Assembly (NCBI GenBank): GCA_023053545.1
Contig: JAKZAN010000001.1
Location: 10,622,565-10,686,564, forward strand
DNA from: Lepidurus packardi
Lineage: Eukaryota > Arthropoda > Branchiopoda > Notostraca > Triopsidae
Direction: 5' to 3'
Length of the DNA stretch: 64,000 bases
Shown here: positions 3,436-23,907 of the stretch, in pieces
Layout: each line of letters begins with the position of its first letter
How positions within the stretch are numbered: position 1 is the first letter of the stretch
Notes under the pieces: model-generated
Databases searched by the model: none
What the model was told of the DNA's origin: nothing
What the model saw: only the letters and a program-made list of their open reading frames with translations
Translations under genes and position numbers: made by a program

Positions 3436-3570
3436 TGTAGGAAACTGTTTTGGGCGATTAAATTGTTTTGAGCGGTTGGGCGGAAGGCTGTGAGTTCTTT
3501 TTTCGCTCAACGGTAAAATACCGTACAACTTTATTCACTATTTTCGTCGGTACAAGTTTTCGTCGGTACA
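3436..3570 (-). repeat. LTR A (3' LTR of the short element)
   Basis: Starts TGTAGGAAACTG and ends CGGTACA on the plus strand. It matches the other LTRs except for three extra bases near the right end (GTTTTCGTCGGTACA against GTTTTCGGTACA). The TG...CA ends are LTR-like in both orientations. No 4-6-bp target duplication can be matched between GAAAC before it and the bases after the last LTR, because the far end is lost in the gap. Confidence 0.8.
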
Positions 3571-3605
3571 ATGTTTGTTCGTCAAGTTTGGTGGGCTGGG
3601 GCTGT

Positions 3606-3627
3606 GCTAGCAGGAGATCCTGCTAGC
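3606..3627. other. Perfect 10-bp inverted repeat (hairpin)
   Basis: GCTAGCAGGA, two bases, then TCCTGCTAGC, followed by a C-tract. It is a strong potential hairpin at the inner side of the left LTR. Function unknown; it could be a structured end of the element RNA. Confidence 0.6.
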
Positions 3628-3825
3628 CCCCCCTAAACAATGTGCAGAACAAGCGTTTATATACATGTTTGGCGTGGAATCTGCTGAATGGGCTAAATTA
3701 TAAACAGAGGGAATGTTCGGGTAAAATAAGACAGATGGACCGGATGCGTGAGAAGGAAATTAGCTAGTGATCTGACGCTCGGCATCCTGGATATGAGCTG
3801 AGAATTATAAGTCGGCGAAATATCG

Positions 3826-4083
3826 TCAAAATGTGGTCAGCGAAATATGGTCTTGCTTAGTCATCGGAATTAAGTTTAAAATGATCGTTCTCCACATCGC
3901 ATTCTTCTCTGAGAGACTACGTCCCGTAGTACAGGTTTTCTGGGGTTTTCTGGGTTGGGTTGAAATAGTTGGGTCGCTTATCGGTTGTCCCAGGAAGGTC
4001 ATCGAGCGTGGACGTGTAGCAGGAGTGGTCGTATTCATGGTTGTGGTCGTAGAGGTCGTAGTGGTCGTGGTGTTCTGTTCCAC
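3826..4083 (-). CDS. Thr-rich gag-like ORF of the short LTR element
   Basis: The only sizeable ORF between the two LTRs in the element's own orientation, about 180 bp inside the primer-binding site, where gag normally starts. It encodes 85 residues beginning with a poly-Thr stretch, then a Pro/Arg-rich middle. An overlapping ORF in another frame (3917-4135) is His/Tyr/Asp-rich. Which frame is used is unclear. No capsid or zinc-knuckle domain is recognisable, so this would be at most the N-terminal tip of a Gag. Confidence 0.3.
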   Translation of the reverse strand: MEQNTTTTTTSTTTTMNTTTPATRPRSMTFLGQPISDPTISTQPRKPQKTCTTGRSLSEKNAMWRTIILNLIPMTKQDHISLTTF

Positions 4084-4263
4084 CTACGGGTGGTAGAGGA
4101 GTTGGCGTCATCTTAGGCACAATGGATTCGTACAAAACTAAACTTTTTTAAACTTCGGTGGAACTGTGGCACGTTGGGCTATTTGAATAATTTGAACGAT
4201 TTTGAACTAGGTGGGACACTTGCACTAATTGGAAACTTATTTGAACTGCCGGTATTTTAACGC

Positions 4264-4283
4264 GAATCCCACTTCTGACACCA
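4264..4283 (-). promoter_or_regulatory. Primer-binding site (tRNA-Leu 3' end) of the short LTR element
   Basis: The plus strand reads GAATCCCACTTCTGACACCA, which equals the 3' end of a leucine tRNA including CCA. On the minus strand this is a canonical PBS starting TGG, three bases (ATT) after the LTR end. Twenty bases match here. In the viral units only the last 17 (TCCCACTTCTGACACCA) are kept. Confidence 0.82.
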
Positions 4284-4286
4284 AAT

Positions 4287-4418
4287 TGTAGGAAACTGTT
4301 TTGGGCGATTAAATTGTTTTGAGCGGTTGGGCGGAAGGCTGTGAGTTCTTTTTTCGCTCAACGGTAAAATACCGTACAACTTTATTCACTATTTTCGTCG
4401 GTACAAGTTTTCGGTACA
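4287..4418 (-). repeat. LTR B (shared by short element and viral unit 1)
   Basis: 132 bp, TGTAGG...GGTACA. On the minus strand it contains AATAAA (plus-strand TTTATT at 4381-4386), consistent with a polyadenylation signal and hence with minus-strand transcription. It also holds a perfect palindrome, ACGGTAAAATACCGT, at 4361-4375. A plausible core promoter was not identified. Confidence 0.82.
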
Positions 4419-4429
4419 TTTTATCTTTT
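4419..4429 (-). promoter_or_regulatory. Polypurine-tract-like run next to the LTR
   Basis: On the minus strand the bases immediately before the LTR start (TGTACC) read AAAAGATAAAA. That is where a retrotransposon polypurine tract should lie. The same run occurs in all three viral units but not at LTR A. It could instead be viral 5' UTR that happens to be purine-rich on that strand. Confidence 0.4.
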
Positions 4430-4444
4430 AATTCTGACTCAAAA

Positions 4445-6304
4445 ATGGCTAGCCCCAATGATCAGGTATTCACTGTTCTGAGGAATTTCCAAGGAGTAAT
4501 TAGAGCTGGGACAGGGGATCCAACGGTGGAAATGGACCCTGGAGGAGGCATTACGGCGTCTTGGGAAGTCTGGAGCGATGTCTCTGCTTACATTCGGTCA
4601 TATGATTTAAAGACCCTTGTGACGATAGTCCCCTCAACCCACTGGGAGAATACAATGGTACTTGAGGTTCCTCCAGATTATGAAGGAACCACTCAACTGT
4701 TAGCAATCTGGCTGAGAAGTGGTATTACTCGAACAGCACAAGGAAATTTTGACGCTGTTCTGCTTGTGGGTAATCAAGAACAGGCAATCCCGGCACTGGC
4801 CAGCATCATTTGCTCAGTGATGGATTTGTGCACTGTCATCCTCCCAGATGTATTATTGCAACACTACAATCGAACATTGGTTCCGGGAAATAACGTGGGT
4901 TTGGTGGATTCCCGACCGGTCTTCTTTTTGTGTAATGACCGCCAACTGGACGCGTTACTGTTGTGCCCAAACGTGAATCAGGTTGAAAAGATTTTGAGCA
5001 CGTTGGTTCACCTTTTTCCATTCGTGCTCCCTGAGTTCCGGCGATCGTTCCAACAATACAATTACCAAATGGCTGAAACATCCCGTGGTGCCTCAACAGA
5101 TGGTACAGCCATTGTTAATCGAATTCAGTTTACTCGATCCTTCTACGCTAAGACTGCTGTCATGTGTTTTGTGTCGGGTTACACTAGAGATAACACTATT
5201 ACGACTCAATTGTACGGTCGTTACAAGGCGTGTTGCGCAAATGCCCGACAGGAAATTCTGGATCTTACTCAATTTCGCTTAACCTATGGCACGCTCGGAG
5301 TTTCTCCCGGAGATGTGGATGGCTCCATTACGGCTGCACTAGGGATGGCTATAGGTCGGGACTCCCAACTGCAGTATTCGCTGGAGGTGACCAAGGATAC
5401 CATGGTCACATTAGAAAATCTTCAGCGTGCTCCGGGTGTGACCCTATGGGGATCTGCCGTCTTTGACGGTCTTAGGCTGGTTTTCTCGTACGCTCATCTA
5501 TCAACTCTCACGTTTGCGGGGTTAGTGCGTACAGCTACCCTAAATGAGCGGACTCCTTTAAGCACTGATTTTGAAGGGGAGGCAATAGCATTAGACAATG
5601 CGATGATGATGATTCCAGGCCAACCCTTCAGGGGGATGACGGCCACTCTGCATCCTGCTCTTCAGGTGGCAAACTTCTCCAAGTTTGCATACCTAGGATT
5701 GCTGTATCATGCTGAATCGCTCGATGAGAAGGAAAAAGCAGATTGGGCGGCATATAACATGGCGGGAGTACGGGCTCATCTACATAGTTCGAGAGACCAA
5801 GCCCGAGTGGCCCTCATGGCAACAGCACTCCCAGAGCCCAGGATAGTAGATATTATCTACCTTGTAGATCTTGGTTTTGTTGACGAGGTCTATAAGGCGT
5901 TAAAGCCTCTTGGCCCGTCTTCTGTTGATACTCTATATACAATGTTGTATAGAAAAGAGTCAACTGCTCTCTGGTTTAATCAGGAGAAAAGGACTAGAGT
6001 TTTGGGTAAAACGCTCGAGTATGCAAGAATTATAACCACCCACGTGAAAGAGGCTTGGGGCACAACTAAAGCTCGCGTCGGAGCTGAAATTAATGACATC
6101 CAGGATGCCGAGGAACGACGCCGAGCCAACCAGTCGGTGCGCGATTTCGAGGCGGAATTGAATGGCCAATTGGCTGGTTTAACCCCAACGGAGGCATTGC
6201 TCCCTACATCCCCCGACGCCTCGTTGCGGCCTATCATTGACACATTACGTACACAATTAGATCAGCTGACTCAATCCGTTCGTAATTTTCAGTATACTCA
6301 TTAA
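4445..6304 (+). CDS. N: Viral nucleoprotein-like protein, unit 1 (endogenous mononegavirus N)
   Basis: A 619-residue ORF starting at the ATG 26 bp after the LTR. The role is inferred from its position as the first gene before a P-like and a G-like gene with mononegavirus-type junctions, and from its soluble, helix-rich composition without signal peptide or membrane segment. In such viruses N coats genomic and antigenomic RNA. A Gly-rich segment lies near residues 33-36, and the C-terminal third is charged and coiled-coil-like (EEAW/DAEERRRANQ region). I recognise no family-specific motif; Jingchuvirales (chuvirus-like) or an arthropod Mononegavirales family are both possible. The frame is also open 42 codons upstream through the LTR, but the ATG at 4445 is the first Met in a good context. 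Unit 1 differs from unit 2 at residues 324 (Glu against Lys) and 439 (Met against Thr). No break. Confidence 0.6.
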   Translation: MASPNDQVFTVLRNFQGVIRAGTGDPTVEMDPGGGITASWEVWSDVSAYIRSYDLKTLVTIVPSTHWENTMVLEVPPDYEGTTQLLAIWLRSGITRTAQGNFDAVLLVGNQEQAIPALASIICSVMDLCTVILPDVLLQHYNRTLVPGNNVGLVDSRPVFFLCNDRQLDALLLCPNVNQVEKILSTLVHLFPFVLPEFRRSFQQYNYQMAETSRGASTDGTAIVNRIQFTRSFYAKTAVMCFVSGYTRDNTITTQLYGRYKACCANARQEILDLTQFRLTYGTLGVSPGDVDGSITAALGMAIGRDSQLQYSLEVTKDTMVTLENLQRAPGVTLWGSAVFDGLRLVFSYAHLSTLTFAGLVRTATLNERTPLSTDFEGEAIALDNAMMMIPGQPFRGMTATLHPALQVANFSKFAYLGLLYHAESLDEKEKADWAAYNMAGVRAHLHSSRDQARVALMATALPEPRIVDIIYLVDLGFVDEVYKALKPLGPSSVDTLYTMLYRKESTALWFNQEKRTRVLGKTLEYARIITTHVKEAWGTTKARVGAEINDIQDAEERRRANQSVRDFEAELNGQLAGLTPTEALLPTSPDASLRPIIDTLRTQLDQLTQSVRNFQYTH

Positions 6305-6370
6305 AATCGGGCTTGTGGATTGTTGCCAGGTGAATGAGGTCCAGCATGCTACGGTTGTTATCTGGGCCAT

Positions 6371-6392
6371 TTAGAAAAACCTTAAGAAAACG
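6371..6392 (+). promoter_or_regulatory. Viral N/P gene junction (gene-end, intergenic, gene-start)
   Basis: TTAGAAAAACC then TTAAGAAAACG, located 66 bp after the N stop and 16 bp before the P start. The same layout recurs before G. TTAGAAAAA resembles the antigenome-sense polyadenylation/gene-end signal of non-segmented negative-strand viruses, followed by a CC spacer and a TAAGA(A/C)AAC start signal. These signals are relics here and would not act without the viral polymerase. Confidence 0.7.
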
Positions 6393-6408
6393 TCTTTCAT
6401 AAGTTGTC

Positions 6409-7764
6409 ATGGCGACGAATTGGGATTTGCCTGAGTATGATTTTTCAGTTGAGCCAGATCCTCAATCATTTCTTGCAGCGGATTATGAGGAACAAACTCG
6501 GAGCACCGGTCGACGCAGGTTCCCAGCTACAGTAAGATCATCCTTGTCAGGCCCGGGGACCCCACATCAAAGTCATTCTCAAGAGATAGGTGTCACCCCC
6601 AGGGTTGCACCTAGATCCTTGTTGTTAGCAACAGCCCCCACTTTTGTTCCTCAATCATCGCAGGCACAATATCATGCGGAACAATTACAACAAGCAGGTG
6701 TGTTTTATCCGGTAACAGCATCCTCAGCCAAACACATGGACGTGCAAGCTCAACAAAAAGAAATGATAGAGGATCCTTGGTACAATGTTGATGAGCAAGT
6801 CTATCCGCGCCCGCCTTCCGTGACTGAGCTAGTGACATCATTTGAGAATTTGGCTCCTCGATCGCCCCGCAGAAAGCGAACTCAACGAGGTCGTGGACGA
6901 GGATCTAATCATCAAGGAAAGGGGCAACAGAAGGCCAAGTATGCAGAACGAAACACCTCCACTTACTTAGATGCTGTGAAACAATCAACCAAAACCCGGT
7001 TTGCACCCCTCCCTACTCAAACACACTTTAAATTAGGAGTTCATCCTAACGGAACTTACCACATTCCTGTTGAAGTGTTTACGAAAATTGAGCAGGGTTT
7101 GACAATAGATGAAGATTACCTTCAGGCCCTTCGTCGAGTTTGGATGTCCGACAATTTTGCCAGGTTGACCGGATCAGCTCCTAACTTCTTGTTCTCTGTA
7201 TTCCTCAGAGGGATACCACCTACTGTTTCCGCCCACCAACGTGCTACTATGATTGTTGAAGCCCAGTATCACCTTCAAGCTCTTATGTTGGGGACAATTG
7301 AGCAAAATCACCAGGAATTTCATGACTCTTTGAAATTATTGGCCACTTTTCAACCTCCCTTATCTGGAGTAGCCACCAAGTTAGATCAATTAAACCTCAA
7401 CATGAGACAACTTCAATCAGGCTTGGACACAATTCATAAGGCTATTGTTGGTGAAACCACAGCCTATTCCAATAGGGCAACTCTTGCTTTGAAGACCCTG
7501 GAATCAACAATTAGGGACTTTTCAACTTCCTTTGCTCATAGTGCAAAAGCATTAACAGCTGCCATTGGTCAGACAACAAAAGCTTCTTCGAGTGTTGGTT
7601 CTCCTTGCCCTCCTGCTGCAGCACCGTCCATCTCTAGTAGAGGTTCAACCCATGCTTTCTCCTCTGTTAGTGGCTTCACTCCTCATGGTCCACAGCCACA
7701 GATGCAAGGTCCACGAACCCAAGCCACTACTCGTGGCCGTATCCCAACGATGGTCATCTTGTAG
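6409..7764 (+). CDS. P: Viral phosphoprotein-position protein, unit 1
   Basis: A 451-residue second gene, lying between N and G as P does in mononegaviruses. The N-terminal 140 residues are Ser/Thr/Gln/Pro-rich and probably disordered, with an acidic start (LPEYDFSVEPD). A strongly basic patch, SPRRKRTQRGRGRG, sits at about residues 151-165. The region of residues 215-340 looks ordered. A helical stretch follows (about 305-385), and the C-terminus is Ser/Pro/Gln-rich. Such a layout fits a polymerase cofactor that bridges N and L. The basic RGRGRG patch is unusual for a P protein and suggests RNA binding. No sequence motif proves the assignment. The ATG at 6409 follows the junction signal directly. 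The frame is intact in units 1 and 2 and split by a transposon in unit 3. Confidence 0.5.
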   Translation: MATNWDLPEYDFSVEPDPQSFLAADYEEQTRSTGRRRFPATVRSSLSGPGTPHQSHSQEIGVTPRVAPRSLLLATAPTFVPQSSQAQYHAEQLQQAGVFYPVTASSAKHMDVQAQQKEMIEDPWYNVDEQVYPRPPSVTELVTSFENLAPRSPRRKRTQRGRGRGSNHQGKGQQKAKYAERNTSTYLDAVKQSTKTRFAPLPTQTHFKLGVHPNGTYHIPVEVFTKIEQGLTIDEDYLQALRRVWMSDNFARLTGSAPNFLFSVFLRGIPPTVSAHQRATMIVEAQYHLQALMLGTIEQNHQEFHDSLKLLATFQPPLSGVATKLDQLNLNMRQLQSGLDTIHKAIVGETTAYSNRATLALKTLESTIRDFSTSFAHSAKALTAAIGQTTKASSSVGSPCPPAAAPSISSRGSTHAFSSVSGFTPHGPQPQMQGPRTQATTRGRIPTMVIL

Positions 7765-7781
7765 GTTGTCTAACAGTTTAC

Positions 7782-7802
7782 TTAGAAAAACCATAAGACA
7801 AC
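7782..7802 (+). promoter_or_regulatory. Viral P/G gene junction
   Basis: TTAGAAAAACC followed by ATAAGACAAC, 17 bp after the P stop and 8 bp before the G start. Its match to the N/P junction over 18 of 21 positions is the best evidence that the three genes come from one negative-strand viral genome. Confidence 0.72.
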
Positions 7803-7810
7803 ATTCAAAA

Positions 7811-9523
7811 ATGAACTTTGTGGTTGACATCAAGATGATTATCATGGTGATCGGATTATGGATGATGTTACCCTCTGTAAACCTTCTATTGGCATATGAT
7901 TGTTTAAAGTTAGAACACACATCTCCTTTCACTCTGATGACCGAAGACCAATGTCTCCAACAGGCGCAAGAAACAGCCATGGAGCGGCCTGTTGAGATAA
8001 CTCTTTTGCAAGCGAAACGAAGTGTTGTAGTAGATGGGTGGATGTGTCAATTGCGTGTTGCCCACGAATCCTATTACTGTACTTGGGACCGGGATCTCAC
8101 CCCCACAGCAAACAAACAACACTCTGTCATTCCCACAACAATCCCTGTTCGAGGTCGCGAATGCCTCAACTGGATGACACAGAATAAAGGGTTATACCAT
8201 ACAACACCTTTTATGACCAAGATGGGTTCAATAACACGCACCCGAGTGAAGGGGGATAATATTGATCACGAGGGTTTTTGCATTGGAAAATCGATCCACA
8301 TCACCGTTGAATGGATTGAAGCCAGTCTTTCACCTATCAGAGTTGTAGCTAATCTTTCTCCACTCGGGCAAATATCAAGTTATGCTCTATTATCTGGCGA
8401 GCAATTAGATCCAGATGGCCCGTTTTCAATGGTAGATTTAGGAGGCTCAGCATATGGGATCCCAAGCATAAATAGCTCGGACTGCAACCTAGTAAAGCTA
8501 TACAGTGGTCCCGGAGTTGTTCTTCAATTCCCCGGAGGAGGAGAAATCCTGATTATCCATAAATTATCAACAGGTGTTCGCCTGAGTGGAATTGTTGATC
8601 GCTGCCATATATCTCTATGGCTTACAGCAGATCCCTTTTTATTTGTGACTAATTCCAGCTCTTACCCCTTGCCTCAGGAATCCTTGGAGGTTGTTGGTGC
8701 TTGGTCCTCCGTAATACAAGCTGCAACAGAATTTTCAGTCTCGTCTTCATTGGCCGCTATCCTCAACTCCAGGCAAGTCAGCTTGATCAACATGTGTCGT
8801 CTGGAGACATCTCTTAGACGAGAAATGCTTTATTCATCGGCCTTGGATCCAGAAATGTTAGGTTACCGACTCACTGGCCAACCGGGGTGGTCAGCCACCG
8901 TTGCAGGAGAGCTCATTAAACTCAGCAAGTGCAGTAGTGTTGTGGTAAAATTAGCCCCGAAGAAATCGTGTTTTACCTTACTCCCTATTGCTAGAGATGG
9001 TGACGACTTAGAATTGTTCATGCATCCGGTTCATAGGACAATTCATACCTCTGCTGTGCAAATATCCTGTGAAGATCCGGCACTCCCAGGATTTTCATCC
9101 GGCAATCAATGGTACGAAATGTCCCCATCTATTCGCCCCCTTGGCCAGATTAACCCCTTGCCTTCAGATCTGAAGGCATACCATACGCTCGACACTTCAA
9201 AAAGGGGTTTATTATATACAGCAGATGTTTTAGCCCGATTAGAAGGTACCACCTGGATTAACGATCGAAAGCGTGTCCTACAAGATTCTCTCCTGAATGA
9301 GGGAGAAATCACTGCTGACGGAACTTCGTTCTCTGTTGGTTATCCTGGAATCTTTGGTGTCATAGGGGGACCATCGACATTAACCATTGTTTGTTGGGTT
9401 ATCTTGGTTGTTTGGTTAACCTTAATCACGGTTATAGTGGTTCGCAACTGGATGACTCAACAAAAATCAGGATCGCCAGCATCGTCCGTGACTGTATCAG
9501 TGGCAACATCATCCCACTTCTGA
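7811..9523 (+). CDS. G: Viral glycoprotein-like protein, unit 1 (type I membrane protein)
   Basis: 570 residues from the ATG 8 bp after the junction signal. The first 28 residues form a signal peptide (hydrophobic IIMVIGLWMMLPSVNLLLA), and the mature start would be near Tyr29. The ectodomain has twelve Cys and N-glycosylation sequons at NLS, NSSD and NSSS. One membrane span (STLTIVCWVILVVWLTLITVIVV) lies about 30-50 residues from the end and is followed by a short tail, as in viral class I or III envelope proteins. No polybasic furin site is obvious. The final residues Ser-His-Phe and the TGA lie inside the 17-base PBS, so the natural viral C-terminus has been cut off and replaced. A longer upstream frame overlapping P (from 7565) was rejected because the signal peptide starts at 7811. 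Chuvirus-like G is a possibility that I cannot confirm. Confidence 0.68.
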   Translation: MNFVVDIKMIIMVIGLWMMLPSVNLLLAYDCLKLEHTSPFTLMTEDQCLQQAQETAMERPVEITLLQAKRSVVVDGWMCQLRVAHESYYCTWDRDLTPTANKQHSVIPTTIPVRGRECLNWMTQNKGLYHTTPFMTKMGSITRTRVKGDNIDHEGFCIGKSIHITVEWIEASLSPIRVVANLSPLGQISSYALLSGEQLDPDGPFSMVDLGGSAYGIPSINSSDCNLVKLYSGPGVVLQFPGGGEILIIHKLSTGVRLSGIVDRCHISLWLTADPFLFVTNSSSYPLPQESLEVVGAWSSVIQAATEFSVSSSLAAILNSRQVSLINMCRLETSLRREMLYSSALDPEMLGYRLTGQPGWSATVAGELIKLSKCSSVVVKLAPKKSCFTLLPIARDGDDLELFMHPVHRTIHTSAVQISCEDPALPGFSSGNQWYEMSPSIRPLGQINPLPSDLKAYHTLDTSKRGLLYTADVLARLEGTTWINDRKRVLQDSLLNEGEITADGTSFSVGYPGIFGVIGGPSTLTIVCWVILVVWLTLITVIVVRNWMTQQKSGSPASSVTVSVATSSHF

Positions 9524-9528
9524 CACCA
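9512..9528 (-). promoter_or_regulatory. Primer-binding site at viral unit 1/2 boundary
   Basis: TCCCACTTCTGACACCA on the plus strand, 17 bases identical to the short element's PBS. Identity between the two stops sharply at its inner edge: GCGAA lies upstream in the native element, ACATCA in the viral unit. It contains the G stop codon (TGA at 9521-9523). Confidence 0.8.
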
Positions 9529-9531
9529 AAT

Positions 9532-9663
9532 TGTAGGAAACTGTTTTGGGCGATTAAATTGTTTTGAGCGGTTGGGCGGAAGGCTGTGAGTTCTTTTTTC
9601 GCTCAACGGTAAAATACCGTACAACTTTATTCACTATTTTCGTCGGTACAAGTTTTCGGTACA
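9532..9663 (-). repeat. LTR C (between viral units 1 and 2)
   Basis: Identical in layout to LTR B, and shared by the two flanking units. Confidence 0.85.
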
Positions 9664-9689: not shown

Positions 9690-11549
9690 ATGGCTAGCCC
9701 CAATGATCAGGTATTCACTGTTCTGAGGAATTTCCAAGGAGTAATTAGAGCTGGGACAGGGGATCCAACGGTGGAAATGGACCCTGGAGGAGGCATTACG
9801 GCGTCTTGGGAAGTCTGGAGCGATGTCTCTGCTTACATTCGGTCATATGATTTAAAGACCCTTGTGACGATAGTCCCCTCAACCCACTGGGAGAATACAA
9901 TGGTACTTGAGGTTCCTCCAGATTATGAAGGAACCACTCAACTGTTAGCAATCTGGCTGAGAAGTGGTATTACTCGAACAGCACAAGGAAATTTTGACGC
10001 TGTTCTGCTTGTGGGTAATCAAGAACAGGCAATCCCGGCACTGGCCAGCATCATTTGCTCAGTGATGGATTTGTGCACTGTCATCCTCCCAGATGTATTA
10101 TTGCAACACTACAATCGAACATTGGTTCCGGGAAATAACGTGGGTTTGGTGGATTCCCGACCGGTCTTCTTTTTGTGTAATGACCGCCAACTGGACGCGT
10201 TACTGTTGTGCCCAAACGTGAATCAGGTTGAAAAGATTTTGAGCACGTTGGTTCACCTTTTTCCATTCGTGCTCCCTGAGTTCCGGCGATCGTTCCAACA
10301 ATACAATTACCAAATGGCTGAAACATCCCGTGGTGCCTCAACAGATGGTACAGCCATTGTTAATCGAATTCAGTTTACTCGATCCTTCTACGCTAAGACT
10401 GCTGTCATGTGTTTTGTGTCGGGTTACACTAGAGATAACACTATTACGACTCAATTGTACGGTCGTTACAAGGCGTGTTGCGCAAATGCCCGACAGGAAA
10501 TTCTGGATCTTACTCAATTTCGCTTAACCTATGGCACGCTCGGAGTTTCTCCCGGAGATGTGGATGGCTCCATTACGGCTGCACTAGGGATGGCTATAGG
10601 TCGGGACTCCCAACTGCAGTATTCGCTGGAGGTGACCAAGGATACCATGGTCACATTAAAAAATCTTCAGCGTGCTCCGGGTGTGACCCTATGGGGATCT
10701 GCCGTCTTTGACGGTCTTAGGCTGGTTTTCTCGTACGCTCATCTATCAACTCTCACGTTTGCGGGGTTAGTGCGTACAGCTACCCTAAATGAGCGGACTC
10801 CTTTAAGCACTGATTTTGAAGGGGAGGCAATAGCATTAGACAATGCGATGATGATGATTCCAGGCCAACCCTTCAGGGGGATGACGGCCACTCTGCATCC
10901 TGCTCTTCAGGTGGCAAACTTCTCCAAGTTTGCATACCTAGGATTGCTGTATCATGCTGAATCGCTCGATGAGAAGGAAAAAGCAGATTGGGCGGCATAT
11001 AACACGGCGGGAGTACGGGCTCATCTACATAGTTCGAGAGACCAAGCCCGAGTGGCCCTCATGGCAACAGCACTCCCAGAGCCCAGGATAGTAGATATTA
11101 TCTACCTTGTAGATCTTGGTTTTGTTGACGAGGTCTATAAGGCGTTAAAGCCTCTTGGCCCGTCTTCTGTTGATACTCTATATACAATGTTGTATAGAAA
11201 AGAGTCAACTGCTCTCTGGTTTAATCAGGAGAAAAGGACTAGAGTTTTGGGTAAAACGCTCGAGTATGCAAGAATTATAACCACCCACGTGAAAGAGGCT
11301 TGGGGCACAACTAAAGCTCGCGTCGGAGCTGAAATTAATGACATCCAGGATGCCGAGGAACGACGCCGAGCCAACCAGTCGGTGCGCGATTTCGAGGCGG
11401 AATTGAATGGCCAATTGGCTGGTTTAACCCCAACGGAGGCATTGCTCCCTACATCCCCCGACGCCTCGTTGCGGCCTATCATTGACACATTACGTACACA
11501 ATTAGATCAGCTGACTCAATCCGTTCGTAATTTTCAGTATACTCATTAA
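9690..11549 (+). CDS. N: Viral nucleoprotein-like protein, unit 2
   Basis: Intact 619-residue copy. It differs from unit 1 by Lys at residue 324 (unique to this copy) and Thr at residue 439 (shared with unit 3). The rest is identical at the protein level, so it is functionally indistinguishable by sequence. Confidence 0.6.
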   Translation: MASPNDQVFTVLRNFQGVIRAGTGDPTVEMDPGGGITASWEVWSDVSAYIRSYDLKTLVTIVPSTHWENTMVLEVPPDYEGTTQLLAIWLRSGITRTAQGNFDAVLLVGNQEQAIPALASIICSVMDLCTVILPDVLLQHYNRTLVPGNNVGLVDSRPVFFLCNDRQLDALLLCPNVNQVEKILSTLVHLFPFVLPEFRRSFQQYNYQMAETSRGASTDGTAIVNRIQFTRSFYAKTAVMCFVSGYTRDNTITTQLYGRYKACCANARQEILDLTQFRLTYGTLGVSPGDVDGSITAALGMAIGRDSQLQYSLEVTKDTMVTLKNLQRAPGVTLWGSAVFDGLRLVFSYAHLSTLTFAGLVRTATLNERTPLSTDFEGEAIALDNAMMMIPGQPFRGMTATLHPALQVANFSKFAYLGLLYHAESLDEKEKADWAAYNTAGVRAHLHSSRDQARVALMATALPEPRIVDIIYLVDLGFVDEVYKALKPLGPSSVDTLYTMLYRKESTALWFNQEKRTRVLGKTLEYARIITTHVKEAWGTTKARVGAEINDIQDAEERRRANQSVRDFEAELNGQLAGLTPTEALLPTSPDASLRPIIDTLRTQLDQLTQSVRNFQYTH

Positions 11550-11615
11550 AATCGGGCTTGTGGATTGTTGCCAGGTGAATGAGGTCCAGCATGCTACGGT
11601 TGTTATCTGGGCCAT

Positions 11616-11637
11616 TTAGAAAAACCTTAAGAAAACG
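11616..11637 (+). promoter_or_regulatory. Viral N/P gene junction, unit 2
   Basis: Same junction sequence as at 6371-6392. Confidence 0.68.
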
Positions 11638-11653
11638 TCTTTCATAAGTTGTC

Positions 11654-13009
11654 ATGGCGACGAATTGGGATTTGCCTGAGTATGATTTTTCAGTTGAGCC
11701 AGATCCTCAATCATTTCTTGCAGCGGATTATGAGGAACAAACTCGGAGCACCGGTCGACGCAGGTTCCCAGCTACAGTAAGATCATCCTTGTCAGGCCCG
11801 GGGACCCCACATCAAAGTCATTCTCAAGAGATAGGTGTCACCCCCAGGGTTGCACCTAGATCCTTGTTGTTAGCAACAGCCCCCACTTTTGTTCCTCAAT
11901 CATCGCAGGCACAATATCATGCGGAACAATTACAACAAGCAGGTGTGTTTTATCCGGTAACAGCATCCTCAGCCAAACACATGGACGTGCAAGCTCAACA
12001 AAAAGAAATGATAGAGGATCCTTGGTACAATGTTGATGAGCAAGTCTATCCGCGCCCGCCTTCCGTGACTGAGCTAGTGACATCATTTGAGAATTTGGCT
12101 CCTCGATCGCCCCGCAGAAAGCGAACTCAACGAGGTCGTGGACGAGGATCTAATCATCAAGGAAAGGGGCAACAGAAGGCCAAGTATGCAGAACGAAACA
12201 CCTCCACTTACTTAGATGCTGTGAAACAATCAACCAAAACCCGGTTTGCACCCCTCCCTACTCAAACACACTTTAAATTAGGAGTTCATCCTAACGGAAC
12301 TTACCACATTCCTGTTGAAGTGTTTACGAAAATTGAGCAGGGTTTGACAATAGATGAAGATTACCTTCAGGCCCTTCGTCGAGTTTGGATGTCCGACAAT
12401 TTTGCCAGGTTGACCGGATCAGCTCCTAACTTCTTGTTCTCTGTATTCCTCAGAGGGATACCACCTACTGTTTCCGCCCACCAACGTGCTACTATGATTG
12501 TTGAAGCCCAGTATCACCTTCAAGCTCTTATGTTGGGGACAATTGAGCAAAATCACCAGGAATTTCATGACTCTTTGAAATTATTGGCCACTTTTCAACC
12601 TCCCTTATCTGGAGTAGCCACCAAGTTAGATCAATTAAACCTCAACATGAGACAACTTCAATCAGGCTTGGACACAATTCATAAGGCTATTGTTGGTGAA
12701 ACCACAGCCTATTCCAATAGGGCAACTCTTGCTTTGAAGACCCTGGAATCAACAATTAGGGACTTTTCAACTTCCTTTGCTCATAGTGCAAAAGCATTAA
12801 CAGCTGCCATTGGTCAGACAACAAAAGCTTCTTCGAGTGTTGGTTCTCCTTGCCCTCCTGCTGCAGCACCGTCCATCTCTAGTAGAGGTTCAACCCATGC
12901 TTTCTCCTCTGTTAGTGGCTTCACTCCTCATGGTCCACAGCCACAGATGCAAGGTCCACGAACCCAAGCCACTACTCGTGGCCGTATCCCAACGATGGTC
13001 ATCTTGTAG
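11654..13009 (+). CDS. P: Viral phosphoprotein-position protein, unit 2
   Basis: Intact 451-residue copy with the same protein sequence as unit 1. Confidence 0.5.
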   Translation: MATNWDLPEYDFSVEPDPQSFLAADYEEQTRSTGRRRFPATVRSSLSGPGTPHQSHSQEIGVTPRVAPRSLLLATAPTFVPQSSQAQYHAEQLQQAGVFYPVTASSAKHMDVQAQQKEMIEDPWYNVDEQVYPRPPSVTELVTSFENLAPRSPRRKRTQRGRGRGSNHQGKGQQKAKYAERNTSTYLDAVKQSTKTRFAPLPTQTHFKLGVHPNGTYHIPVEVFTKIEQGLTIDEDYLQALRRVWMSDNFARLTGSAPNFLFSVFLRGIPPTVSAHQRATMIVEAQYHLQALMLGTIEQNHQEFHDSLKLLATFQPPLSGVATKLDQLNLNMRQLQSGLDTIHKAIVGETTAYSNRATLALKTLESTIRDFSTSFAHSAKALTAAIGQTTKASSSVGSPCPPAAAPSISSRGSTHAFSSVSGFTPHGPQPQMQGPRTQATTRGRIPTMVIL

Positions 13010-13026
13010 GTTGTCTAACAGTTTAC

Positions 13027-13047
13027 TTAGAAAAACCATAAGACAAC
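13027..13047 (+). promoter_or_regulatory. Viral P/G gene junction, unit 2
   Basis: Same junction sequence as at 7782-7802. Confidence 0.68.
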
Positions 13048-13055
13048 ATTCAAAA

Positions 13056-14768
13056 ATGAACTTTGTGGTTGACATCAAGATGATTATCATGGTGATCGGA
13101 TTATGGATGATGTTACCCTCTGTAAACCTTCTATTGGCATATGATTGTTTAAAGTTAGAACACACATCTCCTTTCACTCTGATGACCGAAGACCAATGTC
13201 TCCAACAGGCGCAAGAAACAGCCATGGAGCGGCCTGTTGAGATAACTCTTTTGCAAGCGAAACGAAGTGTTGTAGTAGATGGGTGGATGTGTCAATTGCG
13301 TGTTGCCCACGAATCCTATTACTGTACTTGGGACCGGGATCTCACCCCCACAGCAAACAAACAACACTCTGTCATTCCCACAACAATCCCTGTTCGAGGT
13401 CGCGAATGCCTCAACTGGATGACACAGAATAAAGGGTTATACCATACAACACCTTTTATGACCAAGATGGGTTCAATAACACGCACCCGAGTGAAGGGGG
13501 ATAATATTGATCACGAGGGTTTTTGCATTGGAAAATCGATCCACATCACCGTTGAATGGATTGAAGCCAGTCTTTCACCTATCAGAGTTGTAGCTAATCT
13601 TTCTCCACTCGGGCAAATATCAAGTTATGCTCTATTATCTGGCGAGCAATTAGATCCAGATGGCCCGTTTTCAATGGTAGATTTAGGAGGCTCAGCATAT
13701 GGGATCCCAAGCATAAATAGCTCGGACTGCAACCTAGTAAAGCTATACAGTGGTCCCGGAGTTGTTCTTCAATTCCCCGGAGGAGGAGAAATCCTGATTA
13801 TCCATAAATTATCAACAGGTGTTCGCCTGAGTGGAATTGTTGATCGCTGCCATATATCTCTATGGCTTACAGCAGATCCCTTTTTATTTGTGACTAATTC
13901 CAGCTCTTACCCCTTGCCTCAGGAATCCTTGGAGGTTGTTGGTGCTTGGTCCTCCGTAATACAAGCTGCAACAGAATTTTCAGTCTCGTCTTCATTGGCC
14001 GCTATCCTCAACTCCAGGCAAGTCAGCTTGATCAACATGTGTCGTCTGGAGACATCTCTTAGACGAGAAATGCTTTATTCATCGGCCTTGGATCCAGAAA
14101 TGTTAGGTTACCGACTCACTGGCCAACCGGGGTGGTCAGCCACCGTTGCAGGAGAGCTCATTAAACTCAGCAAGTGCAGTAGTGTTGTGGTAAAATTAGC
14201 CCCGAAGAAATCGTGTTTTACCTTACTCCCTATTGCTAGAGATGGTGACGACTTAGAATTGTTCATGCATCCGGTTCATAGGACAATTCATACCTCTGCT
14301 GTGCAAATATCCTGTGAAGATCCGGCACTCCCAGGATTTTCATCCGGCAATCAATGGTACGAAATGTCCCCATCTATTCGCCCCCTTGGCCAGATTAACC
14401 CTTTGCCTTCAGATCTGAAGGCATACCATACGCTCGACACTTCAAAAAGGGGTTTATTATATACAGCAGATGTTTTAGCCCGATTAGAAGGTACCACCTG
14501 GATTAACGATCGAAAGCGTGTCCTACAAGATTCTCTCCTGAATGAGGGAGAAATCACTGCTGACGGAACTTCGTTCTCTGTTGGTTATCCTGGAATCTTT
14601 GGTGTCATAGGGGGACCATCGACATTAACCATTGTTTGTTGGGTTATCTTGGTTGTTTGGTTAACCTTAATCACGGTTATAGTGGTTCGCAACTGGATGA
14701 CTCAACAAAAATCAGGATCGCCAGCATCGTCCGTGACTGTATCAGTGGCAACATCATCCCACTTCTGA
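13056..14768 (+). CDS. G: Viral glycoprotein-like protein, unit 2
   Basis: Intact 570-residue copy, protein identical to unit 1. A silent C-to-T difference near 14401 is shared with unit 3 and separates both from unit 1. The stop again lies in the PBS. Confidence 0.67.
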   Translation: MNFVVDIKMIIMVIGLWMMLPSVNLLLAYDCLKLEHTSPFTLMTEDQCLQQAQETAMERPVEITLLQAKRSVVVDGWMCQLRVAHESYYCTWDRDLTPTANKQHSVIPTTIPVRGRECLNWMTQNKGLYHTTPFMTKMGSITRTRVKGDNIDHEGFCIGKSIHITVEWIEASLSPIRVVANLSPLGQISSYALLSGEQLDPDGPFSMVDLGGSAYGIPSINSSDCNLVKLYSGPGVVLQFPGGGEILIIHKLSTGVRLSGIVDRCHISLWLTADPFLFVTNSSSYPLPQESLEVVGAWSSVIQAATEFSVSSSLAAILNSRQVSLINMCRLETSLRREMLYSSALDPEMLGYRLTGQPGWSATVAGELIKLSKCSSVVVKLAPKKSCFTLLPIARDGDDLELFMHPVHRTIHTSAVQISCEDPALPGFSSGNQWYEMSPSIRPLGQINPLPSDLKAYHTLDTSKRGLLYTADVLARLEGTTWINDRKRVLQDSLLNEGEITADGTSFSVGYPGIFGVIGGPSTLTIVCWVILVVWLTLITVIVVRNWMTQQKSGSPASSVTVSVATSSHF

Positions 14769-14773
14769 CACCA
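14757..14773 (-). promoter_or_regulatory. Primer-binding site at viral unit 2/3 boundary
   Basis: Same 17-base tRNA-Leu-type site, minus orientation, overlapping the end of G. Confidence 0.8.
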
Positions 14774-14776
14774 AAT

Positions 14777-14908
14777 TGTAGGAAACTGTTTTGGGCGATT
14801 AAATTGTTTTGAGCGGTTGGGCGGAAGGCTGTGAGTTCTTTTTTCGCTCAACGGTAAAATACCGTACAACTTTATTCACTATTTTCGTCGGTACAAGTTT
14901 TCGGTACA
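14777..14908 (-). repeat. LTR D (between viral units 2 and 3)
   Basis: 132 bp, same as LTRs B and C. Confidence 0.85.
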
Positions 14909-16033
14909 TTTTATCTTTTAATTCTGACTCAAAAATGGCTAGCCCCAATGATCAGGTATTCACTGTTCTGAGGAATTTCCAAGGAGTAATTAGAGCTGGG
15001 ACAGGGGATCCAACGGTGGAAATGGACCCTGGAGGAGGCATTACGGCGTCTTGGGAAGTCTGGAGCGATGTCTCTGCTTACATTCGGTCATATGATTTAA
15101 AGACCCTTGTGACGATAGTCCCCTCAACCCACTGGGAGAATACAATGGTACTTGGGGTTCTTCCAGATTATGAAGGAACCACTCAACTGTTAGCAATCTG
15201 GCTGAGAAGTGGTATTACTCGAACAGCACAAGGAAATTTTGACGCTGTTCTGCTTGTGGGTAATCAAGAACAGGCAATCCCGGCACTGGCCAGCATCATT
15301 TGCTCAGTGATGGATTTGTGCACTGTCATCCTCCCAGATGTATTATTGCAACACTACAATCGAACATTGGTTCCGGGAAATAACGTGGGTTTGGTGGATT
15401 CCCGACCGGTCTTCTTTTTGTGTAATGACCGCCAACTGGACGCGTTACTGTTGTGCCCAAACGTGAATCAGGTTGAAAAGATTTTGAGCACGTTGGTTCA
15501 CCTTTTTCCATTCGTGCTCCCTGAGTTCCGGCGATCGTTCCAACAATACAATTACCAAATGGCTGAAACATCCCGTGGTGCCTCAACAGATGGTACAGCC
15601 ATTGTTAATCGAATTCAGTTTACTCGATCCTTCTACGCTAAGACTGCTGTCATGTGTTTTGTGTCGGGTTACACTAGAGATAACACTATTACGACTCAAT
15701 TGTACGGTCGTTACAAGGCGTGTTGCGCAAATGCCCGACAGGAAATTCTGGATCTTACTCAATTTCGCTTAACCTATGGCACGCTCGGAGTTTCTCCCGG
15801 AGATGTGGATGGCTCCATTACGGCTGCACTAGGGATGGCTATAGGTCGGGACTCCCAACTGCAGTATTCGCTGGAGGTGACCAAGGATACCATGGTCACA
15901 TTAGAAAATCTTCAGCGTGCTCCGGGTGTGACCCTATGGGGATCTGCCGTCTTTGACGGTCTTAGGCTGGTTTTCTCGTACGCTCATCTATCAACTCTCA
16001 CGTTTGCGGGGTTAGTGCGTACAGCTACCCTAA

Positions 16034-16161
16034 TGGCGTTTTCCTTTGGGAGCCCTAGTGCTGAACTTTCATCCACTGAGTGCACTTTGCGTTTTCCTTT
16101 GGGAAGCGAGAGCAAGTTCAGTGACACTGGGCAAATTCCTTTGGGAAGGTGCGCACTGGAA
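16034..16161. repeat. Harbinger left end with subterminal TTCCTTTGGGA repeats
   Basis: TTCCTTTGGGA occurs at about 16043, 16094 and 16136 on the plus strand. The right end has the same word at 18857 and its complement at 18953. The spacing is irregular, which fits binding sites for the Myb-like partner protein. Confidence 0.6.
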
Positions 16162-16241
16162 AGTGCGGCCAAGGGCAGCTTTTGCAGCTCTGACTTTTTC
16201 GGCAGTGCTACAGTTTGAGAGCGGTAGGTTTGGCGCCAAAT

Positions 16242-17584
16242 ATGAACCCAACACAAAAACAAAAGTTACTTTTTCTTCTTTTAGAGGAAATGTCGTCCTC
16301 AAGTTCTAGTAGTGACAGTGACAGTGATGAAATGGCTTTTTTACTTGCGGATTATCAAATTCCCAGGCCCAAAATAAGGAACTACGGGTCCATAATACGT
16401 TTGTACTCGGACGAAGAGGTAACCTAGCTACCTTGTGATTATTCGTTTATAATATCCAGTTCTCTATTCGTTTTTAGTTCAGGAAGAACTTCCGAATGTC
16501 TCGGCGGGTATGCGACCAACTTATCACGTTATTCCATAATTCTGATTTCTACCCGAAAAGTTGTACGCGTGGGGGTATTCCTCCTAACTCAGCCGACAAT
16601 TACATCTTGTCATTCCTATGGTACTTCATGGGTCTTTAGATAAATTATAACAATCAGTTTATAGGTTTGCAGGTAATAAAGCGTGTCTGCGGGACACTGC
16701 TGGTCGTTTCGGGATTGGCGAGACATCACTGTTTCGCCAAATAAACAAAGTAATGGAGTTTTTGCTGGACATCGCGCCACTGTACATATCTTTTCCCAGT
16801 ACTGTGGAGGCAAAGCGAAAACTAGCCGATGAATTTTATAGGGTAAGTACTGCTATTTAGCGCTTTAAGAGTCAATAGAGGCTATTTATTAGGTTGCTGG
16901 ATTCCCTGGGGTGCTCGGGTGCATAGACGGAAGCTACATATCCGTCAGAACACCAGCACATAAAATACGGTCTACCTACGTGAATCGCCACGACCAGGTA
17001 TCCGTAACAATGCAAGGCATCTGTGACGCGAATAGAGCATTTCTCGACGTCTTTACGGGAACACCCAGCAAAATCCATGATGCCCGCATCTACAAGATGT
17101 CTTTCATCTCTAAGGACTTGCCTGTTATCTGCAACGGCGATTACCATCTACTTGGTAAGCTTTCAAATCATTAACTAAAATATTAAAACGTTCTAGTTTA
17201 GGAGATTCAGCATACCCACTGTCCGAATGGCTAATGACGCCACACAAAGATTTCGGAAACTTAACCCCTGAAAAACTCCAATTCAACCGCAAGCTAAGCT
17301 CAACGAGGGTACTAATTGAGAATGCCTTTGGCATTCTCAAACAACGGTTCCGGCAACTTCAGCATCTGGAATTCCACAGTGTGGATAAGATAACTAAGTT
17401 TATTATTTCTTGCTGCGTTCTTCATAATTTGTGTATTCGGAACAACGACATTGAGTTCGATACTGTCCCCGAAGAAAACAACCCTGCCGGAGAAGATTGC
17501 CCTCAAGCAAGCGGGCGAGAAGCCGAAACGCGACTCCGCGGAGAAGCAAAGCGGGAGCGCCTAGCCATACAAATGGCTAGTTAA
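16242..17584 (+). CDS. Harbinger transposase (DDE_Tnp_4 / HARBI1-like nuclease), five exons
   Basis: Exons 16242-16418, 16478-16620, 16665-16842, 16893-17154 and 17202-17584 give 380 residues. All four introns (44-59 bp) have GT-AG ends and keep the frame, and joining across them produces conserved family text (SFLWFAGNKACLRDTAGRFG; LLGDSAYPL). The catalytic triad is visible: Asp in GCIDGSYI (exon 4), Asp in GDSAYPL (exon 4/5 junction) and Glu in TRVLIENAFGILK (exon 5). An acidic Ser/Asp tract follows the start. This is the cut-and-paste nuclease and needs the element's Myb-like protein for DNA binding and nuclear import. The ATG at 16242 was chosen as the first Met in the frame. No disabling change seen. 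Confidence 0.88.
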
Positions 17585-17939
17585 GACAGATTGAAATCTG
17601 CATATCTTGTGGTAAAAAAAAAAAAAAAAACTATTTTTCATTAAACGAAAATTTCGCAAAAATTGTATTGAAAACGTAACAACTTTGCCTCCCATTTTCA
17701 GAACTCACTGACAGTTTTACTAACTTTACGTACATTCCGGAATACAAATTTACCTGGATGAGATCTTAACGTTTCTTGGATAAACATGACATTGGTTTGA
17801 TAAACGATGACTTAGTTATAACACTGAGGTAACATTGAATCACTGAGAATTTTGGCAGTCATCTTACAAGGCAGTGAAAATCACAGAGTTAAGATTTGAG
17901 TACTGGTAAAAATTAGAATTGCGAACCGGGCCAAAAAAT
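17585..17939. other. Intergenic region between the convergent Harbinger genes
   Basis: Contains an A-run at 17613-17630 and AT-rich 3' UTR-like sequence. No ORF is recognised. Confidence 0.5.
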
Positions 17940-18807
17940 TCACGCAGCTTGTTTCTCCAAAAGGGATTTAATCAATTCCAGACGCTCTTTATGGCGCTTA
18001 TCCTTCATCTCTTCTTTCTTCCGGTTGGACTCTTGCTTTTCCTTGTGAAATTCCAATAGTAAGTTTTGAACTGTTGAATACTTCGTTTTCTTTCTTTCAG
18101 GCTCCTCGTCAGAATTTGCGCTCGTGTTGGGGGACGGAACCGTTTGTTTCTCCGTAGCGTCTTCCTTCTGCGAGACAGTTTCCTTGTGGGCGACAATGCC
18201 AACTCCCCTTCTTATCTCAGGCTCTATCGAGTCGTCCAGCGAGGCAATCTTGCTTAGCTCGTCTTCGTATTCTACAGAGGTCCTGGTGTTTCCGCTCCTT
18301 TTATTTAAATCAAGAGCTCCCTTCTTTCGCTTCATGAGGGTTTTGTATCTATTCTCGCATTGCGCATTAGATTTGGACGACGAAATAACAGCGAGATCTT
18401 CCGATATTCTTCCCCACATCGCCTTCTTGTTTTTGAATTTCTTCAAGGGACCAATTTCATCCATGTACTCATGGTACTTTTGGAGAAGGAAACGAGTCTC
18501 TCCTTCGGTCCAGTCATTTCGTGTGTTTTGCGTAGAAGCAGCAGGTAGAGAATCTTCCTCCGTTTCAGGCTCTAGAACACCGATGTCAACCAAGAGTTGT
18601 CTTTGGAGAGACCGGACTTGAATTTGTCCTGAATTAAATTAAATAGCTTATTCACAATATCGAAACAACAATTATAAATTAAGGTAATACAAAAGTACCG
18701 TCCACTGTAACCGTGCAGAGAAATTCTGACCCGTTCGGAACCGGAATGCCCTCCTCGTTCCTCACAAAGTCTTCAAACAAAAAAGACGTAGAAGCTGAAG
18801 CAGCCAT
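17940..18807 (-). CDS. Harbinger Myb/SANT-like (MADF/trihelix-type) DNA-binding protein, two exons
   Basis: Exon 1 is 18699-18807 and exon 2 is 17940-18628, with a 70-bp GT-AG intron; together they encode 265 residues. The DNA-binding region has the spaced Trp/aromatic pattern of a Myb/SANT-like trihelix (WTEGETRFLLQKYHEY, then MWGRISEDL and CENRYKTLMKRKKG). The C-terminal third is a highly charged coiled coil (HKEKQESNRKKEEMKDKRHKE). In Harbinger elements this second protein binds the subterminal repeats and recruits the nuclease. It is convergent with the transposase gene, as usual for the family. Intact. Confidence 0.85.
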
Positions 18808-19801
18808 GTTTACAAACAAGCAGGAAAACAGAGGAGGACCGTTGCACTAGCCGTCTTCCTTTGGGAACTGCCTTTTGGCACTGGCTGGGGCGCTGTGACG
18901 CCCCAGTGGCGAAAACTCGGAAACTGGGGCAGCACTAAAAATGCACTCAGTGTTCCCAAAGGAAAACGCCATAAATGAGCGGACTCCTTTAAGCACTGAT
19001 TTTGAAGGGGAGGCAATAGCATTAGACAATGCGATGATGATGATTCCAGGCCAACCCTTCAGGGGGATGACGGCCACTCTGCATCCTGCTCTTCAGGTGG
19101 CAAACTTCTCCAAGTTTGCATACCTAGGATTGCTGTATCATGCTGAATCGCTCGATGAGAAGGAAAAAGCAGATTGGGCGGCATATAACACGGCGGGAGT
19201 ACGGGCTCATCTACATAGTTCGAGAGACCAAGCCCGAGTGGCCCTCATGGCAACAGCACTCCCAGAGCCCAGGATAGTAGATATTATCTACCTTGTAGAT
19301 CTTGGTTTTGTTGACGAGGTCTATAAGGCGTTAAAGCCTCTTGGCCCGTCTTCTGTTGATACTCTATATACAATGTTGTATAGAAAAGAGTCAACTGCTC
19401 TCTGGTTTAATCAGGAGAAAAGGACTAGAGTTTTGGGTAAAACGCTCGAGTATGCAAGAATTATAACCACCCACGTGAAAGAGGCTTGGGGCACAACTAA
19501 AGCTCGCGTCGGAGCTGAAATTAATGACATCCAGGATGCCGAGGAACGACGCCGAGCCAACCAGTCGGTGCGCGATTTCGAGGCGGAATTGAATGGCCAA
19601 TTGGCTGGTTTAACCCCAACGGAGGCATTGCTCCCTACATCCCCCGACGCCTCGTTGCGGCCTATCATTGACACATTACGTACACAATTAGATCAGCTGA
19701 CTCAATCCGTTCGTAATTTTCAGTATACTCATTAAAATCGGGCTTGTGGATTGTTGCCAGGTGAATGAGGTCCAGCATGCTACGGTTGTTATCTGGGCCA
19801 T

Positions 19802-19823
19802 TTAGAAAAACCTTAAGAAAACG
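19802..19823 (+). promoter_or_regulatory. Viral N/P gene junction, unit 3
   Basis: Same junction sequence as in units 1 and 2. Confidence 0.68.
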
Positions 19824-23878: not shown

Positions 23879-23899
23879 TTAGAAAAACCATAAGACAAC
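23879..23899 (+). promoter_or_regulatory. Viral P/G gene junction, unit 3
   Basis: Same junction sequence as at 7782-7802. Confidence 0.68.
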
Positions 23900-23907
23900 A
23901 TTCAAAA

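What the first reader, a model, noticed from the sequence alone, without database searches (positions are those of the whole stretch)
4264..9663. Viral cDNA joined to an LTR element at the inner edge of the tRNA primer-binding site
The short LTR element and the viral units share the LTR plus exactly the 17-base PBS (TCCCACTTCTGACACCA on plus), and homology stops at the next base in every unit. That edge is where plus-strand strong-stop DNA ends during LTR-element reverse transcription. A junction there suggests template switching of retrotransposon RT onto a viral RNA at or near strand transfer, producing an LTR-flanked polycistronic viral insert. Known virus-retroelement chimeras usually involve one gene; three adjacent genes with intergenic signals would be unusual.
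Basis: partly seen in the sequence, partly recalled or inferred. Interest (0 to 1): 0.95.

Follow-up and report, generated by a model that had tools for sequence, protein, structure and literature searches.

The report
RNA-virus genes captured at tRNA primer
Three neighbouring genes of a predicted unknown RNA virus lie inside a jumping LTR element, joined to it at the last base of its tRNA-primer site, so the element's copying enzyme likely switched onto viral RNA and pasted virus genes into its host's chromosome.

Summary
Window 3436-25712, continued on contig C33, is one composite LTR insertion: 5'LTR-PBS, four viral N-P-G units (antisense to the LTR) alternating with partial R-U5-PBS copies, a short internal region, 3'LTR. 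Its flanks match two uninserted copies of the target repeat, overlapping by exactly 4 bp. The shared primer-site copy is 18 bases, tRNA-Leu(CAA) nucleotides 59-76, the usual end of plus-strand strong-stop DNA in retroviruses. A full-length sister element is Ty3/gypsy type with a baculovirus-F-type env.

The genome records further captures from related viruses. On C5 the sister LTR and PBS run on through about 43 nt of tRNA-Leu into N, with a 4-bp duplication, inside a flavivirus-like envelope sequence. Elsewhere P-G and N copies end in poly(A); one poly(A) abuts a complete tRNA-Ser with non-genomic CCA. Template switching onto viral RNA is the best explanation. Corrections: the "LTR" in viral units is 132 bp of its R-U5 side; the match is 18 bases; tandem copies probably arose later.

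The parts
3436..3896 (-). complete 3' LTR (subfamily B, 461 bp, TGTGGAG...CCTACA) of the composite element
   Evidence: 1 mismatch in 461 to the 5' LTR on contig C33; outer flank GTTT duplication
3897..4265 (-). short internal region between PBS and 3' LTR
   Evidence: similar layout in two plain short elements, L081 and L082
4266..4283 (-). primer-binding site, 18 nt, complementary to tRNA-Leu(CAA) 3' end incl. CCA
4287..4418 (-). partial LTR copy (U5 side, probably part of R plus U5, 132 bp), joined to the N gene start at 4418/4419 with microhomology ACA
4445..6304 (+). unit 1 ORF in N position (619 aa, predicted nucleoprotein)
   Evidence: open; no homologue
6371..6381 (+). N/P gene junction signal TTAGAAAAACC
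   Evidence: a like signal carries poly(A) at the end of G in the C5 11.36-Mb array
6409..7764 (+). unit 1 ORF in P position (451 aa)
7782..7792 (+). P/G gene junction signal TTAGAAAAACC
7811..9523 (+). unit 1 glycoprotein ORF (570 aa); viral sequence ends at about 9510 and the stop codon lies in the PBS
   Evidence: (PF24664)
9511..9528 (-). 18-nt PBS joined directly to viral G
9532..9663 (-). partial R-U5 copy between units 1 and 2
9690..14768 (+). unit 2: N, P, G ORFs
14756..14773 (-). 18-nt PBS joined to viral G, unit 2/3
14777..14908 (-). partial R-U5 copy between units 2 and 3
14935..25617 (+). unit 3, interrupted by two later insertions (about 16034-18968 and 20203-22860)
25605..25622 (-). 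18-nt PBS joined to viral G, unit 3/4
25626..25712 (-). U5-R copy cut by an assembly gap (25713-25812); contig C33 resumes at the next LTR base with unit 4 and the complete 5' LTR

Best explanation
A composite LTR element with a 4-bp target duplication carries three predicted viral genes joined at the 18th base of its primer-binding site, and it likely arose when a Ty3/gypsy-type retrotransposon's reverse transcriptase switched from its own strong-stop DNA onto viral RNA. Shown: a 461-bp LTR at each end, one mismatch apart; a 4-bp duplication against two empty sites; the 18-nt PBS joined to G; the N start joined to the U5 side of the LTR; a full-length sister element in the same genome. Inferred: plus-strand strong-stop DNA, paused before the methylated A58 of tRNA-Leu, annealed by a few bases to viral RNA inside G and was extended in antisense through P to the N gene start. 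It then moved onto R of the retrotransposon copy and finished as an LTR-flanked, integrase-competent cDNA. Inferred: the four tandem units arose later by unequal recombination between the repeated R-U5-PBS copies. The C5 locus (about 43 nt of tRNA copied, then N) would be the read-through version of the same event. Not shown: the polymerase gene, the direction of each jump, and any present function.
For: (1) Flanks overlap by exactly 4 bases on two of two uninserted paralogues fetched; the predicted empty-site 30-mer is found without mismatch at 24 places, reversed control 0. (2) The junction is after 18 nt of PBS in 4 of 5 PBS copies of the composite (3 in the window, 1 on C33); the fifth leads into the element's own internal region. 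(3) C5 array: LTR-ATT-PBS continues as about 43 nt complementary to tRNA-Leu(CAA) through T-arm and variable arm, then N; no difference among 6 of 6 units over the 300 bases compared. cmscan calls it tRNA-like at 30.3 bits, gathering score 29. It includes CCA at the LTR side, which 0 of the 6 tRNA genes encode. (4) That insert starts TGTGGAGAA, ends TTCTCCACA and has GATC on both sides, as an integrase product would. (5) Poly(A) follows the gene end in C5 P-G units and C2/C23 N units, so viral mRNAs were copied; in C2/C23 the poly(A) abuts a whole tRNA-Ser(AGA)+CCA. (6) A relative of G lacks the PBS but reads ATCTCA where the strong-stop tip would pair with ATCCCA, 5 of 6 bases. (7) The sister element encodes RT, RNase H and integrase. 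(8) Another junction, P upstream region to U5-PBS-internal-LTR, has the same topology at a different base (L058).
Against: The strand and order of jumps cannot be read from DNA. The second switch falls inside the LTR, roughly 60 nt short of the RNA 5' end that its TATA box predicts; R itself was not mapped. The 18-nt stop at A58 is recalled from retroviruses; for yeast Ty3 the review read in passages gives 12 nt of tRNA copied and a PBS not inherited from the tRNA. The tRNA copy on C5 differs from the nearest gene (L065) at 2 loop positions, and its virus-side edge is ambiguous by 4 nt (AAGA). ARAGORN called 0 of 6 tRNA-Leu genes; their identity rests on the sequence and on cmscan of 3 of the 6. 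Two other viral arrays (C3 G, C5 P-G) have no LTR at the unit joint, so not every capture shows this signature. No full-length subfamily-B element was found. Window and C33 are separated by an assembly gap and linked by the exact LTR continuation and the empty sites.
Confidence: 0.8

Rival explanations
1. Viral cDNA made by any reverse transcriptase was joined at the DNA level, by end joining or microhomology repair, to an LTR element already sitting in the chromosome.
For: Microhomology at joints (ACA, CTT, AAGA); arrays without LTRs at their joints exist.
Against: It gives no reason for joints at base 18 of the PBS or for a tRNA copy with CCA running into N; the C5 chimera has its own inverted U3 ends and GATC on both sides, so it was integrated as a chimera.
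Confidence: 0.13
2. LINE-type retroposition of polyadenylated viral mRNA, with LTR pieces added by later insertion.
For: Poly(A) tails at viral gene ends in two arrays; N fragments next to LINE-like sequence on C5 9.65 Mb (judged by eye only).
Against: No poly(A) at the G edge of the window units; both viral edges abut LTR/PBS sequence, and the outer flanks carry a 4-bp duplication as at 5 of 5 LTR insertions examined.
Confidence: 0.04
3. Assembly or library chimera.
For: 100-N gaps at 575-674 and 25713-25812; C33 is a separate 25-kb contig.
Against: Exact empty sites, unit-specific differences, two insertions in one unit only, and a second LTR-PBS-virus locus with another junction.
Confidence: 0.02
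4. The 18 bases belong to the virus, or the elements are a real hybrid virus that normally carries LTR and N-P-G.
For: Intact ORFs in several units.
Against: The related G continues with other sequence and a longer tail; at the C5 locus N has the opposite orientation relative to its LTR.
Confidence: 0.01

Closest known systems
Nodavirus-like insert in a BEL/Pao LTR element of Bursaphelenchus xylophilus (PMC5177903, passages read)
   Same: RNA-virus gene inside an LTR retrotransposon with PBS and LTRs, attributed to capture
   Different: RdRp-like gene in a degenerate BEL/Pao element; the authors propose reverse transcription and capture by non-homologous recombination; no strong-stop junction, tRNA read-through or repeated captures in the passages read
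Aedes non-retroviral integrated RNA virus sequences beside Ty3/gypsy elements (PMC5497376, passages read)
   Same: Ty3/gypsy elements associated with viral cDNA; authors think template switching likely
   Different: Association and enrichment; the passages read show no base-level junction at PBS or tRNA
Chuvirus glycoprotein in Pao elements, 'Anakin' (PMC7642597, passages read)
   Same: Glycoprotein of a negative-strand RNA virus taken up by an LTR retroelement
   Different: One glycoprotein gene within otherwise complete elements; here three genes, antisense, in a non-autonomous element
LTR-mediated retroposition of host mRNAs (Tan 2016, not held; known through one passage of PMC8232201)
   Same: mRNA copied by LTR machinery and flanked by LTR sequence
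   Different: Host mRNAs, not viral RNA

Membership tests
Ty3/gypsy (Metaviridae, errantivirus-like) for the full-length sister element | RT-RNase H-integrase order with gypsy-type domains | tested here: met
   RVT_1, then RT_RNaseH, Integrase_H2C2, rve over two ORFs
Ty3/gypsy (Metaviridae, errantivirus-like) for the full-length sister element | LTRs TG..CA, PBS just inside 5' LTR, short target duplication | tested here: met
   520-bp LTRs 99.4% identical, PBS 3 nt inside, GATT on both sides
Ty3/gypsy (Metaviridae, errantivirus-like) for the full-length sister element | env of baculovirus-F type | tested here: met
   PF12259 8.2e-22
Ty3/gypsy (Metaviridae, errantivirus-like) for the full-length sister element | Placement in an RT tree | not tested
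   no tree was built
Monjiviricetes (Mononegavirales/Jingchuvirales) for the captured virus | Class-specific fusion glycoprotein | tested here: met
   PF24664 1.2e-31, cut-off passed
Monjiviricetes (Mononegavirales/Jingchuvirales) for the captured virus | Consecutive genes with repeated gene-end/gene-start signals | tested here: met
   TTAGAAAAACC at both gene junctions of all three window units (6 sites); poly(A) after TTTAGAAA at the end of G in a relative
Monjiviricetes (Mononegavirales/Jingchuvirales) for the captured virus | Nucleoprotein homology | tested here: inconclusive
   no hit; single-sequence model pLDDT 35.7, unusable
Monjiviricetes (Mononegavirales/Jingchuvirales) for the captured virus | L polymerase | not tested
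   PF00946 genome search unanswered in 13 of 13 tries (last); in the copies whose G edge was looked at (C1, C5 11.36 Mb, C3) none runs on past G
Non-retroviral endogenous viral element | Host-genome copy of a non-retroviral RNA virus gene with a host junction | tested here: met
   target duplication and empty sites

The most novel reading that the evidence does not exclude
This genome runs a recurrent capture route in which retrotransposon particles turn RNA-virus mRNAs into LTR- and tRNA-tagged cDNAs that are integrated and amplified into tandem arrays, a heritable antiviral RNA archive in which LTR promoters make RNA antisense to the virus.
Probability: 0.2. Interest if true: 0.95.

Novelty: new variant of a known kind. 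Interest (0 to 1): 0.84.

Why it matters
How RNA viruses without a reverse transcriptase enter chromosomes is mostly argued from association with retrotransposons. Here the joints themselves keep the reverse-transcription intermediate: an 18-nt primer copy, a tRNA read-through, poly(A) tails, a whole tRNA with CCA, and a target duplication with empty sites. That makes the mechanism testable base by base, and shows that several viral genes can be taken at once and that capture has happened repeatedly.

Tried and rejected
Sequence homologues of N and G: none at E 0.001 among the 7994 and 7996 candidates scored from 5.8 billion proteins, none in PDB sequences, none by tblastn in IMG/VR; no NCBIfam family above cut-off for N, P or G. 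N structure from one sequence was unusable. SL1 RNA search for a nematode host: no match, but 0 of 14 control genomes rang, so uninformative. The starts of six large contigs, seen in part and one of them all N, show no telomere repeat by eye. An early idea that viral sequence starts exactly at mRNA 5' ends was weakened: AAGAT upstream of the P and G starts is viral, so the C5 edge is ambiguous. An early idea that tRNA-Ser on C2 was a primer was dropped: the LTR-like repeat there continues differently in another copy (70), so the tRNA was copied as a template or joined. NG86 gave no dS for 6 of 7 pairs (saturated) and YN00 failed for 7 of 7 (73), so only dN and identities are used.

Full report
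OBSERVATION. The window is G000:C1:10622565-10686564 of an unnamed 108.6-Mb genome. Units of 5245 bp repeat from 4266; units 1 and 2 differ at 3 positions. Each holds ORFs in N (619 aa), P (451 aa) and G (570 aa) position, with TTAGAAAAACC at both gene junctions. G matches Pfam PF24664, Monjiviricetes fusion glycoprotein, at 1.2e-31. N and P match no family above cut-off, and N has no relative in the searches made; they are named by position and by the gene-junction signals. The 17-mer in the finding occurs four times in the window and 75 times in the genome, reversed control 0.

WHAT THE LTR IS. A full-length element lies at C1:2.82-2.83 Mb: LTRs 520 bp, 99.4% identical, PBS three bases inside, GATT on both sides, with RT, RNase H, integrase and a baculovirus-F-type env. 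It is Ty3/gypsy-type and carries LTR subfamily A. The window uses a sister subfamily (B) with a 461-bp LTR; no full-length B element was found. Two plain short B elements (L081, L082) have LTR, PBS, an internal region of about 330-370 bp, LTR, and 4-bp duplications TAAG and GTGT. The viral units contain only 132 bp of the LTR (its U5 side; R is inferred from the TATA and AATAAA motifs), then ATT, then the PBS. The LTR reads on the minus strand, so the viral genes are antisense to it.

ONE COMPOSITE INSERTION. The window ends at an assembly gap inside a U5-R copy (25712). Contig C33 begins at the next LTR base and holds a fourth unit (its P has one in-frame stop), then PBS and a complete 5' LTR. 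The 5' and 3' LTRs differ at 1 of 461 bases, which suggests a young insertion. The outer flanks are parts of a host repeat. Joining them with one copy of the 4-base duplication predicts an empty site, and that exact 30-mer is present at 24 places, reversed control 0. Two fetched copies align to the left flank and the right flank with an overlap of exactly four bases. This also ties C33 to the window.

THE JOINTS. The shared primer-site stretch is 18 bases, ATCCCACTTCTGACACCA. Six genes of an intron-bearing tRNA-Leu, anticodon CAA read by eye, end in that sequence without CCA (cmscan run on three of the six hit all three; ARAGORN found none of the six). Eighteen bases correspond to tRNA nucleotides 59-76; the stop of plus-strand strong-stop DNA before methylated A58 is recalled knowledge from retroviruses. 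For yeast Ty3, PMC5371799 (passages) gives 12 nt of tRNA copied and says the PBS is not inherited from the tRNA, so the 18-nt stop is not established for Ty3-type elements. A relative of G on C5 reads CCATCTCAACACG at this point and goes on, with no PBS; so the virus did not supply the PBS, and a short near match could have primed the switch. At the other end the N start (ACATTTTATC) meets the LTR at TGTACC, sharing ACA/TGT.

OTHER CAPTURES IN THE SAME GENOME. N has 25, P 11 and G 28 protein-level matches. (a) C5 10.40-10.44 Mb, period 5338: complete LTR of subfamily A (about 96% identical), ATT, PBS, then about 43 nt that are the complement of tRNA-Leu up to the variable arm (2 loop mismatches to the nearest gene), then N in sense; no difference among 6 units over 300 bases. 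This insert begins TGTGGAGAA, ends TTCTCCACA, has GATC on both sides, and lies in a flavivirus-like envelope sequence (Pfam PF00869 9.7e-34 and E stem 1.8e-19). (b) C5 11.36-11.38 Mb: P-G copies ending at the gene-end signal with a long poly(A) joined to P; at the array edge P joins U5-PBS-internal-LTR B. (c) C2 and C23: N fragment, poly(A) of roughly 18-30, complete tRNA-Ser(AGA) with CCA, then 154 nt of another LTR-like repeat starting at its TGT end. (d) C3: 17 G fragments in tandem without recognisable LTR at the joint printed. Between the three N loci compared, N is 84-91% identical in protein but 72-76% in DNA, dN 0.05-0.10; G is 82-90% and 74-77%, dN 0.06-0.11. Within the C5 N array the copies differ at 0-3 sites. 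Hence different virus lineages, diverged under purifying selection, were taken up separately and amplified later.

MECHANISM. Best fit: strong-stop DNA of the Ty3/gypsy element, at its normal stop (window) or after reading on into the tRNA (C5), continued on viral RNA, and the product was integrated by the element's integrase. Poly(A) shows that mRNAs were available to the enzyme; the window N-P-G template was a read-through mRNA or antigenome. Tandem units most simply arose by unequal exchange between the direct R-U5-PBS copies that flank the insert; this is inferred. Direction and order of jumps are inferred.

NOVELTY. LTR-element capture of RNA-virus sequence is known (PMC5177903, PMC5497376, PMC7642597; passages read). 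Nine searches (open-licence PMC papers only) listed no paper whose title or shown start of abstract describes viral RNA joined at the strong-stop edge or through a copied tRNA; full texts were not read. I rate it a new variant of a known kind.

LIMITS. The polymerase search (PF00946) did not complete. Genome counts are lower bounds by the tool's own statement. Expression and function are untested.

Noticed in passing
window 25813-63271: Second tandem array, period about 5.88 kb, more than 6 copies, with RNase H and integrase domains of a Ty3-like element; inverted pieces of it also at 1-574 and 675-788.
   Followed up: partly
window 16034-18968 and 20203-22860: Two insertions in unit 3 only; an ORF of the second has hAT-like matches below Pfam's cut-offs, and the unit sequence is repeated for 8 bases at its ends, 6 at the first.
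   Followed up: partly
L012-L017, L063; C5:11139612-11173234, C5:9597334, C5:9692086: Flavivirus-like envelope sequences, 33 matches, all 33 on C5, some in a tandem array of about 3.7-kb period.
   Followed up: partly
L018 1310-1395 and 3072-3157; L020 1314-1399 and 3072-3157: Complete tRNA-Ser(AGA) with CCA directly after the poly(A) of a viral N copy in the C2 and C23 arrays (two loci scanned).
   Followed up: partly
window 3570-3621; L062 6610-6661: 52 bases of the subfamily-B LTR match (98%) the protease/RT ORF of the full-length element in the same orientation, suggesting an older template switch inside the LTR.
   Followed up: no
C5:10403413-10435683 insert edge: The viral end of the chimeric insert carries 9 bases inverted from the U3 end, giving both ends the same terminus; origin unexplained.
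   Followed up: no
C6:3412021-3430021: The host repeat hit by the composite forms a tandem array of about 1056-bp period.
   Followed up: no
L025 (C2:792372-796784): N array abuts sequence that reads by eye like a BEL/Pao gag zinc-knuckle region.
   Followed up: no
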